In this document: positions 12,101-17,075 of the stretch, piece by piece | How the letters are laid out: each line of letters begins with the position of its first letter | Position numbering within the stretch: the stretch's first letter is position 1 | Virus record (IMG/VR): IMGVR_UViG_3300033146_002583 | Coordinates: 1 to 20,528 of that record | Source of the DNA: a virus | DNA: 20,528 nucleotides | Direction: 5' to 3' (one strand) | Program-made: the position numbers and the translations under genes | The notes under the pieces: generated by a model | The model's input: only the letters and a program-made list of their open reading frames with translations | What the model was told of the DNA's origin: nothing | Databases searched by the model: none

Positions 12101-12526
12101 TTAGAATTCGTCCTCCACATCTTTTTCTTGTAGAGCGACAGCACGTTTCCAGGCATCTCGCCAATCAATAAATCGTTGTTCTAAATATTTATATGCCATA
12201 GATTTCGCTTCTTTAAAGGATTTGAATTCAGTAGGAACAGGAGATTTTTCAACATCAGTATACATACCATCGAAATAAACATCAAAATATTCGCCTTCAC
12301 CTAATTGAATATCTTTTTGTTTAAGTGACCTAATCCGTTTCATACCCTCTTGAAAATCTTTTTTTCTTTGAGAAGTTGTTTTTACTAAATCTTTTTTAGC
12401 TTTAGCGAATGAATTATATTCACCATGAGGAGATTTCAAAATTACAGAATATGTACCATCCTCATAATAAGTATAACGAATTTTCTCTTTTTTCTCTTTT
12501 AACAATTTTATAAATTTATTGTCCAT
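12101..12526 (-). CDS. Unknown protein with two tandem copies of one module
   Basis: This 141-residue protein lies between uvsY and uvsW. Two halves align: residues 21-73 (DGTYSVILKSP, EYNSFAKAK, then LKQKDI) and 84-137 (DGMYTDVEKSP, EFKSFKEAK, then LQEKDV). One inserted residue follows KSP; beyond it the copies match in register through to KDI/KDV. Each module looks like two or three beta strands followed by helices. The family is not recognised. It overlaps the end of uvsY by 11 bases and has only a weak ribosome site, so it is probably translated by coupling. Function in recombination is guessed from location only. Confidence 0.8.
   Translation of the reverse strand: MDNKFIKLLKEKKEKIRYTYYEDGTYSVILKSPHGEYNSFAKAKKDLVKTTSQRKKDFQEGMKRIRSLKQKDIQLGEGEYFDVYFDGMYTDVEKSPVPTEFKSFKEAKSMAYKYLEQRFIDWRDAWKRAVALQEKDVEDEF
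12186..12193 (-). promoter_or_regulatory. Possible late promoter TATAAATA upstream of uvsW
   Basis: An exact TATAAATA lies on the minus strand inside the duplicated-module gene, about 100 bases before uvsW. T4 uvsW is a late gene, so a late promoter here would make sense. In DNA this AT-rich the octamer is expected by chance a few times, so this internal copy is weakly supported. Confidence 0.3.
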
Positions 12527-12947: not shown

Positions 12948-13262
12948 TTATCCTTTATGTTCCCATGCTGTAAATATATAAGTATCATCATTGAAAGAAA
13001 TCCAACGTAAACCTTTTAATTTTGCAATTTTTGAAAGTTGACTTGGATCTAAACGAATACCAACACCTTTTTGTGATCTAACTATTAAACCAGTAATAAT
13101 ACCATGAATACCAGAATGAATATTATTTTTATTTATTGTAATTGGAGCTTTTAGAATTTTTGATAATTTATCAATTTCTTTAACTATATATTCTGGCATT
13201 TCATTTTCTTCAATTGCTGAAGCTTCTGTAAGATATTTTTTTATATTTTCTATATTATTCAT
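12948..13262 (-). CDS. Unknown protein with capsid-targeting-like N-terminus
   Basis: I place the start at the ATG at 13260-13262, giving 104 residues; GAAAGGAA lies about 10 bases upstream. A longer frame reaches a TTG at 13287-13289, but the ribosome site then lies inside the frame. The N-terminus MNNIENIKKYLTEAS ends in L-T-E/A, which fits the gp21 cleavage rule [LI]-x-E/A and resembles T4 capsid-targeting peptides. The remainder (GIRLDPSQLSKIAKLKG, then WISFNDDTYIFTAW) looks like a compact alpha/beta domain, unrecognised. It is the first gene after the control region ahead of uvsY. Confidence 0.75.
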   Translation of the reverse strand: MNNIENIKKYLTEASAIEENEMPEYIVKEIDKLSKILKAPITINKNNIHSGIHGIITGLIVRSQKGVGIRLDPSQLSKIAKLKGLRWISFNDDTYIFTAWEHKG

Positions 13263-13449: not shown

Positions 13450-13457
13450 TATTTATA
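13450..13457 (-). promoter_or_regulatory. T4-type late promoter motif TATAAATA
   Basis: An exact TATAAATA on the minus strand lies between the gp23 terminator and the sigma70 promoter. It would let gp55-bound polymerase keep transcribing the uvsY-uvsW block late. T4 makes UvsW late, so this is consistent. The leader would be about 180 bases. Confidence 0.6.
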
Positions 13458-13499: not shown

Positions 13500-13539
13500 A
13501 AAAAAAGGGGTGCTAGTAAAAACCAACACCCCTTTTTTT
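13500..13539 (-). terminator. Intrinsic terminator after gp23
   Basis: AAAAAAAGGGGTG (13500-13512) and CACCCCTTTTTTT (13527-13539) pair across a 14-base loop. Transcription on the minus strand gives a GC-rich stem followed by seven U residues. It lies 18 bases after the gp23 stop. The symmetric A/T flanks make it potentially active in both directions, though no plus-strand gene ends here. Confidence 0.93.
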
Positions 13540-13557
13540 ATATATAGCAATTACTAA

Positions 13558-15036
13558 TTAGTAAAGGCTTGATCCTGCAATTGAAGAACCACTAAAGTCA
13601 GCGAAGAAACGACGATAATAGTTAGAAGCTCCGAAGAGATTCTCAATCAATGCATAACGTGTCATAAATCCAATTTTTGGTTGGAAAGAAGTTGGATCAA
13701 CAACTTTTTGAACCATCAATGGAACATATGGACAGTAAACAAGACCAGTATCAAAAGCACCTGGACCTTTATAACCAACAGTAATATAATCTACCATTGC
13801 GAAAGTATCAACATAAACAGTGAAACGTCCGTCAAGAACACCAACTTTAGAAACACCAGTTCCAGCACTAACAGTACCAGGAACAGCTGAGTACATGAAA
13901 CTAGAAAGTGATTCAAGAGCGGTTGCGACGTTTGTAGAGCAAATAATAAAGTTACCAGCGCCACGACGTGTAGTCAATGCGATAGTATTTGCTTCTTTAA
14001 CAATACGTGTATAAAGTGTACGGAATTTCTCAGCTTCCCAACGACCATCGGATACATTAGAACCTACAGCGATTGGAGTACCAGAAGAAAGACCATAAAT
14101 CCATGGTTTAAGACCTGAAGTCGCAATAGTATTCATCTTGTCAACTAATTCACGGTCAATTTCAGCACCAACTTCATATTCAATAATGTTAATGAGCTCT
14201 TGTTCTGCATTAAGACCATGAACTGATTTAAGGTCTTGAGCTAATTCCATTGAATATTCAGCTTTCAATTTACGAGTTTGTGCTTCAGCTGCTACACGCT
14301 CAAGACTCATTTTCATGGTCTTCATTTCTTTTTCACGGTCAGAAATAGTTGAACCAGCTTGACCCATTTGCTCACCAAATTGAGTTGTTACTTTATCTGC
14401 ATAGTTTTTGAAGATGATGTTGAAACCAGCTTCGTTACCTAAACAAAGTTCAGTTGCTTGATCACTAGGAGTACCAGTTGAATCGATGGAAATAACACCA
14501 CCTGAAACTGGAACTGCAGTACCTGAGATGTCAACCAAAATACGACCAGGCTCAGTATAAACAACAACTGCGTCTTCAGTAGTAGAACCAGCACCAAAAC
14601 CAATTGGTGTAGTTTCAGGAACAACTAAAGTATCGTCAGCGAGTACGATTGCCCATGATTTGAAACCGAATGGGTTTGAAGAATCACCACGGTTAAGACC
14701 TTGCTCATCAAATGGTGCAGGATAAGGACGAGCTTCTGCTTCAGCGCCAGCGCCATAACGGAAACGAATTGCGTAAGCGTAACCAGTAGGACCGTTAAGA
14801 GGCTGAACACCAACGAGATCGTTAGCTAAAAGACCTGGGAATACACGGCGAACTGCTGGTACGAGGATTGGAAAGAAAGGCGCCATATCGCCTGTATTAT
14901 TTTGTTCTTCTTGAAGAACATACTCTTCCTGGTTTTCAAGAATTTGAGCCATTGCCTCAGCTTCTTGAACAGGCTTGAGTTTATTACCTTCAGCGGTAAT
15001 AACATCATTCCATTTTTCAAGTAAAATTTTTGACAT
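13558..15036 (-). CDS. 23: Major capsid protein gp23
   Basis: This protein forms the hexamers of the head shell. The 492 residues are near T4 gp23 in length. The segment VRRVFPGLL then DLVGVQPLNGPTG (about 62-85) closely matches the T4 motif DICGVQPMNSPTG, and ENQEEY near residue 35 matches the T4 propeptide ENQEK. A likely gp21 cut is LQE/E at residues 41-44, which would give a propeptide of only 43 residues against about 65 in T4. GC content is higher than in flanking genes, fitting a highly expressed protein. AGGAGA precedes the ATG and a strong terminator follows the stop. Confidence 0.96.
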   Translation of the reverse strand: MSKILLEKWNDVITAEGNKLKPVQEAEAMAQILENQEEYVLQEEQNNTGDMAPFFPILVPAVRRVFPGLLANDLVGVQPLNGPTGYAYAIRFRYGAGAEAEARPYPAPFDEQGLNRGDSSNPFGFKSWAIVLADDTLVVPETTPIGFGAGSTTEDAVVVYTEPGRILVDISGTAVPVSGGVISIDSTGTPSDQATELCLGNEAGFNIIFKNYADKVTTQFGEQMGQAGSTISDREKEMKTMKMSLERVAAEAQTRKLKAEYSMELAQDLKSVHGLNAEQELINIIEYEVGAEIDRELVDKMNTIATSGLKPWIYGLSSGTPIAVGSNVSDGRWEAEKFRTLYTRIVKEANTIALTTRRGAGNFIICSTNVATALESLSSFMYSAVPGTVSAGTGVSKVGVLDGRFTVYVDTFAMVDYITVGYKGPGAFDTGLVYCPYVPLMVQKVVDPTSFQPKIGFMTRYALIENLFGASNYYRRFFADFSGSSIAGSSLY

Positions 15037-16130: not shown

Positions 16131-16808
16131 TTATCCTCGATTTGAAATTGTGTTAAGGAAATCCTCAAACACTTTTTTAGTAGCATTGACGATATCTTCC
16201 TTAGCATATTCGTCGAGTTTATCTTTTAAATCTTCAACTTCTTTTTCTACCAAAATACCATTTTCCATAACCCATTCAGTATTACTTTCGAGAATACCAT
16301 TAACGAATGCATCAGGGGCACTTGGATCAGCAACAATATCAACAGTAATTAAACGGAAATCGTTTTGAACAACATTTTCCTTTAATGTACCAACTCCACG
16401 TGTACTAACCCCTAATTTAACACCAGACTCAATTAATGATTTAGCAATTTGACCCATTGGTGTATCCATAACTAATGATTTACCAATACCATTTTTGCCT
16501 TCCATTTTGAGTTCTTTAATAAGGTGGGAAACACGATCTAAATTGATTTCTGTTGTGTTTGGGTGACCTAATTCACCCATTGCGCGATTAGATGAAATTC
16601 TTGATTTTGTAAAATTAGCGACTTGTCCTTCTAATACTTTATGCGGATAAGTTCTACCATTACCATTTTTAACATCTGCTTGAAGATATGGTCCTGTGAT
16701 ATAGAAATTCTTTTTAGAAGCTTTACCTTCTTCGAGACTTTCTTCTTCAATGATCTCGTTTGTGATAGATGCTAAATCACAATCTTCTGTTATAATAAGT
16801 TGACTCAT
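16131..16808 (-). CDS. 21: Prohead maturation protease gp21
   Basis: This serine protease cleaves scaffold and capsid proteins after [LI]-x-E inside the prohead. The 225 residues match T4 gp21 in length. After FYITGPYLQADVKNGNGRTYP (about 35-55), the catalytic His is in GELGHP (H82) and the nucleophile in GVSTRGVG (S135). VDIVADPSAPDAFVN (156-170) carries the conserved PSAPDA motif. The N-terminal IIEEESLEEGK offers self-cleavage sites. The order protease, small core protein, scaffold, capsid is the T4 order apart from the inserted core gene. Confidence 0.94.
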   Translation of the reverse strand: MSQLIITEDCDLASITNEIIEEESLEEGKASKKNFYITGPYLQADVKNGNGRTYPHKVLEGQVANFTKSRISSNRAMGELGHPNTTEINLDRVSHLIKELKMEGKNGIGKSLVMDTPMGQIAKSLIESGVKLGVSTRGVGTLKENVVQNDFRLITVDIVADPSAPDAFVNGILESNTEWVMENGILVEKEVEDLKDKLDEYAKEDIVNATKKVFEDFLNTISNRG

Positions 16809-16832: not shown

Positions 16833-17075
16833 TTATTTGACTAATTTTTCAAGTTTTTTATATTCAGGGTTTGTTTTAACCACAACATCTGATTTCTTTG
16901 CGATTACATTCCCTTTGCCTACTTTGACCGATATATCTCCATTACTTCTAATATCCAGAATTTCACCTTTTATTACTTTACCTAGTAATGCATCATATCT
17001 ATTGGCATTTTTAATAATAACAATTTCGCCAGATTTCATTTTACTTTCAGCAAATAATTCTAAAAAACTTTTCAT
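16833..17075 (-). CDS. Small prohead-core-like protein (position of gp68)
   Basis: I start at ATG 17073-17075 (80 residues, MKSFLELFAESKMKSGE), preceded by AAGAGG at a 12-base spacing. An upstream start at 17100-17102 would add nine residues and overlap the acidic ORF by 20 bases. The N-terminus resembles capsid-targeting peptides of T4 (F-A-E/S; the rule prefers L or I at the first place). The rest (GEIVIIKNANRYDALLGKV, then DISVKVGKG) looks like a small beta barrel. It sits where T4 has gene 68, directly ahead of 21. Sequence similarity to gp68 is not established. Confidence 0.6.
   Translation of the reverse strand: MKSFLELFAESKMKSGEIVIIKNANRYDALLGKVIKGEILDIRSNGDISVKVGKGNVIAKKSDVVVKTNPEYKKLEKLVK

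What the first reader, a model, noticed from the sequence alone, without database searches (positions are those of the whole stretch)
12948..13262. Capsid-targeting-like N-terminus on a protein next to uvsY
MNNIENIKKYLTE/A resembles the T4 capsid-targeting peptide (a helix ending in [LI]-x-E/A that gp21 cuts). If real, this early/late-promoted protein is packaged into the head and injected, although its gene lies in the recombination block.
Basis: partly seen in the sequence, partly recalled or inferred. Interest (0 to 1): 0.6.

Follow-up and report, generated by a model that had tools for sequence, protein, structure and literature searches.

The report
Orphan phage protein with head-targeting-like tag
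A small accessory gene, found only in this T4-like phage, starts with a short peptide that fits the tag T4 uses to load proteins into its head, so its product is probably (not yet demonstrably) packaged with the DNA and injected into the host.

Summary
The minus-strand ORF at 12948-13262 (104 aa) begins MNNIENIKKYLTE/A. Aligned on the scissile Glu, it places I7, Y10, L11 and E13 at the four positions that mutagenesis of T4 IPIII showed to govern targeting (two) and cleavage (two). The match exceeds chance: 0.08% of shuffles of the protein itself, and 10 observed against 0.43 expected for this motif class at N-termini in T4-like contigs. Non-T4 control phages gave none. Similar long tags (MNIEKIYTKYLNE/S, MSDIVEKIDKYLDE/G) sit in head-gene blocks of other T4-like contigs. 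In close relatives, otherwise unrelated small head-block proteins share only MKSF....E10, the clade's standard tag.

The body of the protein has no relative anywhere searched, and the gene is absent from all four closest relatives, where uvsY directly follows gp23. It is therefore an accessory gene placed between the gp23 terminator/promoters and uvsY. Best reading: an internal-head (IP-like) protein, packaged, trimmed by gp21 and injected, probably against host defence. The motif lacks the clade's MKSF start, orthologues cannot be tested, and packaging is unproven. Probability about 0.6. This would be a new member of a known kind.

The parts
12948..13262 (-). 104-aa orphan accessory ORF with CTS-like N-terminus (candidate internal head protein)
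   Evidence: coding periodicity; no homologue; absent from relatives
13224..13262 (-). Putative capsid-targeting propeptide, codons 1-13 (MNNIENIKKYLTE)
   Evidence: register -6 I, -3 Y, -2 L, 0 E, +1 A; CTS residues from PMC9026906
13206..13214 (-). Second [LI]-x-E site, codons 17-19 (IEE/N); no further such site in the remaining 85 residues
13364..13392 (-). Sigma70-type (early-like) promoter TTGACG-17-TATACT, followed by a leader (GCGAGAGGGTAATAT) conserved in relatives
13450..13457 (-). TATAAATA late-promoter-like element
13500..13541 (-). Strong terminator-type hairpin after gp23
   Evidence: -28.7 kcal/mol, z -6.6 over a 71-nt segment
12516..12944 (-). uvsY, next gene downstream in the same orientation
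12101..12526 (-). 141-aa protein after uvsY, N-terminus MDNKFIKLLKE/K (orthologues MDNKFITYLKE/N, MNTKFRKYLLE/A): possible second tag, inconclusive
16833..17075 (-). 80-aa protein in the slot upstream of gp21, MKSFLELFAE/S: clade-type CTS (F rather than L/I at -2)
16131..16808 (-). gp21-type prohead protease; GELxHP, GVSxRG and PSAPDA motif regions align with T4 gp21
   Evidence: (Peptidase_S77 E 2.2e-31)
13558..15036 (-). gp23 major capsid protein; putative gp21 site EEYVLQE/EQ

Best explanation
The ORF encodes a small accessory internal head protein. Its first 13 residues form an amphipathic helix that docks it on the scaffold core of the prohead. The gp21-type protease then cuts after L-T-E13 (or after I-E-E19). 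The roughly 10-kDa basic remainder stays with the packaged DNA and is injected, most likely to blunt a host defence, as T4 IPI does. The gene was acquired between the gp23 terminator/promoters and uvsY, so it can be transcribed early and late together with uvsY. Shown: the ORF, the motif and its excess over chance, the protease, the promoters as sequence elements, and absence from relatives. Inferred: docking, cleavage, packaging, injection and target.
For: IPIII mutagenesis assigns targeting to residues 4 and 7 and processing to 8 and 10, with propeptides of 10-19 residues (PMC9026906); the candidate has matching residues in register. Motif excess at N-termini in T4-like contigs: 10 observed vs 0.43 expected; T4 itself 3 vs 0.17, recovering IPII, IPIII and gp24; non-T4 phages 0. 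Tagged genes concentrate near head genes (13/217 vs 4/280, p 0.01; the count includes the candidate). Long-tag analogues lie in head cassettes of L022 and L023. Own-composition shuffles 0.08%. The helical hydrophobic moment exceeds 97% of shuffles. The predicted mature part is basic, pI 9.3, like IPI at 9.0. Both [LI]-x-E sites lie within residues 11-19 and none follow. The gene is an orphan accessory with aberrant GC3 of 0.048, as expected of IP-type genes, which keep only the CTS in common (PMC3012670).
Against: It lacks the MKSF start shared by the clade's other tagged proteins, and has I rather than F/Y at the -6 targeting position. It lies outside the gp20-gp23 cassette, next to a recombination gene. 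A similar N-terminus occurs on the post-uvsY 141-aa protein, where the +1 residue is not conserved, so such helices may arise on non-packaged proteins here. T4 shows several loose-motif hits on non-head proteins. There is no orthologue to test conservation and no virion data.
Confidence: 0.6

Rival explanations
1. The protein is a cytoplasmic early accessory protein of the uvsY operon (for example a small recombination or anti-host factor) whose N-terminal helix matches the tag by coincidence.
For: It lies ahead of uvsY behind an early-type promoter. AT-rich genes are rich in I, K, N, Y and E, and loose matches are not rare (1.7% per protein; several T4 non-head genes). The 141-aa neighbour also matches loosely.
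Against: The strict form with +1 A is rare even in its own composition (0.08%), shows about 20-fold excess at N-termini in T4-like contigs and none in non-T4 controls. A TATAAATA element precedes it.
Confidence: 0.33
2. The helix does target the protein to the prohead core, but the protein acts there as a scaffold or morphogenesis component rather than as an injected effector.
For: T4 IPIII mutants accumulate polyheads and IPs associate with gp22 (PMC9026906). The gene is 296 bp downstream of gp23.
Against: Relatives with 78-85% identical gp23 lack the gene, so it is not needed to build the head; the two [LI]-x-E sites near the N-terminus would leave an intact mature body.
Confidence: 0.07

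Closest known systems
T4 internal head proteins IPI, IPII, IPIII (CTS plus gp21-cleaved propeptide)
   Same: Small basic protein, N-terminal amphipathic propeptide of 10-19 residues ending [LI]-x-E/A, hydrophobic or aromatic residues at -6 and -3, accessory gene with a highly variable body.
   Different: No sequence similarity in the body; tag starts MNNIENI rather than MKT[YF]; located between gp23 and uvsY rather than by denV/e; packaging untested.
MKSF-tagged head-block proteins of close relatives (L002 1218-1508, L006 8042-8323 and others, L007 1227-1475, window 16833-17075)
   Same: Same register (-6, -3, 0) and same kind of phage; small, variable bodies.
   Different: Those share M1 K2 S3 F4 E10 exactly and sit in the gp20-gp22 block; the candidate has a 13-residue tag without MKSF and lies downstream of gp23.
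Long-tag head-cassette proteins of L022 (MNIEKIYTKYLNE/S) and L023 (MSDIVEKIDKYLDE/G, MSDILEKIDGYLEE/G)
   Same: 13-14-residue helix with I at -6 and again near -10/-9, Y at -3, L at -2, E at 0, small residue at +1.
   Different: Different, more distant T4-like phages (gp23 44-46% identical); bodies unrelated; also untested experimentally.

Membership tests
T4-type internal head proteins (CTS-bearing) | N-terminal propeptide of 10-19 residues with the CTS register (-6, -3 hydrophobic/aromatic; -2 L/I; 0 E) | tested here: met
   I7, Y10, L11, E13, A14; register from PMC9026906
T4-type internal head proteins (CTS-bearing) | Sequence similarity to a known CTS at residues 1-4 (MKT[YF] in T4, MKSF in this clade) | tested here: not met
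   Starts MNNI; six clade proteins share M1 K2 S3 F4 E10. This is a consensus rather than a proven requirement, apart from residue 4 (= -6), where the candidate has I.
T4-type internal head proteins (CTS-bearing) | Phage encodes a gp21-type protease with [LI]-x-E-compatible head substrates | tested here: met
   Peptidase_S77 E 2.2e-31, catalytic motif regions align with T4 gp21; gp23 VLQE, gp21 SLEE/G
T4-type internal head proteins (CTS-bearing) | Motif conserved in orthologues | tested here: inconclusive
   No orthologue in phages, plasmids, IMG/VR, the species-genome collection or eight relatives' records
T4-type internal head proteins (CTS-bearing) | Present in virions and cleaved by the prohead protease | not testable with these tools
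   Needs the phage and mass spectrometry
T4-type internal head proteins (CTS-bearing) | Late expression (available during prohead assembly) | tested here: inconclusive
   TATAAATA at 13457-13450 and in the same gap of all four relatives, but the count in the window is not above chance
IPI fold (anti-GmrSD) | Detectable sequence or fold similarity to IPI | tested here: inconclusive
   No PDB sequence match; single-sequence model pLDDT 40, unusable

The most novel reading that the evidence does not exclude
Both genes flanking uvsY (the 104-aa orphan and the 141-aa conserved protein) carry capsid-targeting propeptides, so this clade loads the virion with proteins co-expressed with its recombination mediator and delivers a pre-made recombination or DNA-protection kit with the genome.
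Probability: 0.1. Interest if true: 0.65.

Novelty: new member of a known kind. Interest (0 to 1): 0.4.

Why it matters
If true, the tag marks unknown phage proteins as injected effectors from sequence alone, even outside the head-gene block and without any homologue, giving a short list of candidate first-response anti-defence proteins in uncultured T4-like phages. It also supports a longer tag type (M-x-x-I-[ED]-x-I-x-x-Y-L-x-E/small) besides the T4-like ten-residue tag.

Tried and rejected
Homologue searches for the body all failed: tblastn against phages, IMG/VR, the full records of eight relatives, the species-genome collection, PDB sequences, and Pfam, PHROGs, PADLOC and NCBIfam; plasmids gave one chance-level hit at E 0.9. 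The IMG/VR and species-genome scans with a single sequence reach close relatives only. The single-sequence AlphaFold model (pLDDT 40) was not taken to fold search. A widened UvsY-alignment scan returned only the same four relatives. I considered that the ORF start arose by one base change in the second uvsY promoter of relatives (TATTATAAATA versus TATTATGAATA): the visual match is striking, but an ungapped scan did not rank that site first, so it is not claimed. PeSL-type shuffling (promoter plus stem-loop cassettes; mentioned in PMC4503421) fits the terminator/promoter setting, but the primary papers were not held and it was not tested. The 141-aa neighbour as a second CTS protein stays undecided.

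Full report
The window is a complete 20,528-bp IMG/VR record of an uncultured T4-like phage. On the minus strand it runs gp21-type protease, gp67-like protein, gp22, gp23, the 104-aa ORF, uvsY, a 141-aa protein, uvsW, gp55-like, gp47 and gp46 (the names of the genes not scanned there rest on their sequence and order). The closest cultured gp23 is about 35% identical; four IMG/VR contigs are close relatives (gp23 78-85%, UvsY 64-88%).

The ORF at 12948-13262 is a genuine coding frame, with GC of 0.38/0.31/0.05 by codon position. It begins MNNIENIKKYLTEAS, and its GC3 of 0.048 is lower than that of every neighbour checked (p 0.004 against the lowest), in keeping with a recently acquired gene. 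All four relatives go from gp23 to uvsY with no gene between, so it is accessory. No relative of its body was found in any collection.

What makes a CTS is known from IPIII (review PMC9026906): ten residues suffice, residues 4 and 7 direct targeting, 8 and 10 direct processing, and propeptides are 10-19 residues long. Relative to the scissile Glu these are -6, -3, -2 and 0. The candidate has I, Y, L and E there and A at +1, with a second site (I-E-E19) and none later. The helix is amphipathic at a level reached by 3% of shuffles.

Controls. In T4 the register motif recovers IPII, IPIII, gp24 and Alt plus some probable false hits; IPI is missed because its [LI]-x-E (ITE19) lies beyond the scanned positions. 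With strict residues and +1 in A/S/G, T4-like contigs give 10 N-terminal hits where internal frequencies predict 0.43, T4 gives 3 against 0.17, and parts of SPbeta and phage K give none (only 104 control proteins). Intermediate-stringency hits concentrate around head genes (13/217 against 4/280). Gene calls were made with a simple home-made caller, and the contig set was chosen by gp23 similarity, so these figures are approximate.

The clade uses the system. In L006 four small proteins on either side of gp21 carry MKSF-type tags, and among six small proteins from the window and relatives the only invariant columns are M1, K2, S3, F4 and E10: a shared tag on unrelated bodies, as described for T-even internal proteins (PMC3012670). 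The candidate lacks MKSF but resembles longer tags in head cassettes of L022 (MNIEKIYTKYLNE/S) and L023 (MSDIVEKIDKYLDE/G, MSDILEKIDGYLEE/G).

Expression. Between gp23 and the ORF lie a strong hairpin, TATAAATA, and a sigma70-type promoter whose downstream leader is conserved in relatives. Early plus late transcription is therefore plausible, not shown.

Judgement. The resemblance is real and better than chance, but membership in the internal head proteins is not established: one consensus feature (the MKSF start) is not met, conservation cannot be tested and virion data do not exist. I put packaging at about 0.67 in all (injected effector 0.6, head-building role 0.07) and coincidence at about one third.

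Noticed in passing
L006 6326-8871: Head-block cassette of four tagged proteins around gp21: a DUF285-domain protein (MLKSFQEFMFE/A), one with a YHG...GIYF pattern that recalls ADP-ribosyltransferases (from memory; no family hit), a 93-aa protein, and a 182-aa protein with HEFTHIVQ (HExxH, zincin-like).
   Followed up: partly
L083 3863-4438 (Tenacibaculum phage pT24 BPT24_172): Homologue of the HExxH protein of L006 (E 5e-5) with HEATHARQ retained; N-terminus MKTILEYFDPILTDMVFE/S could be a long tag.
   Followed up: partly
L006 12339-15035: uvsW is split by an ORF matching HNH/homing endonuclease families (PHROG 12434 E 4.9e-13), suggesting an intron or other intervening element.
   Followed up: no
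L006 11721 and 11813; L003 2508; window 13345: A conserved leader (GCGCAGAGGGTAATAT) follows the early-type promoter before uvsY, duplicated with its promoter in L006.
   Followed up: partly
L023 5544-7815: Run of eight small proteins after gp21, most starting with M..I..I..YL.[ES]-like peptides, apparently an expanded internal-protein cassette.
   Followed up: partly
window 12101-12526: 141-aa protein after uvsY keeps K4 F5 L9 E11 in three orthologues but +1 varies (K, N, A); absent from L006.
   Followed up: partly
L036 11416-11895 and L024 11327-11686: The gene directly after gp23 in other T4-like contigs also starts with a tag-like peptide (MKLLKYINE/S, MKFKKYLIE/K).
   Followed up: no
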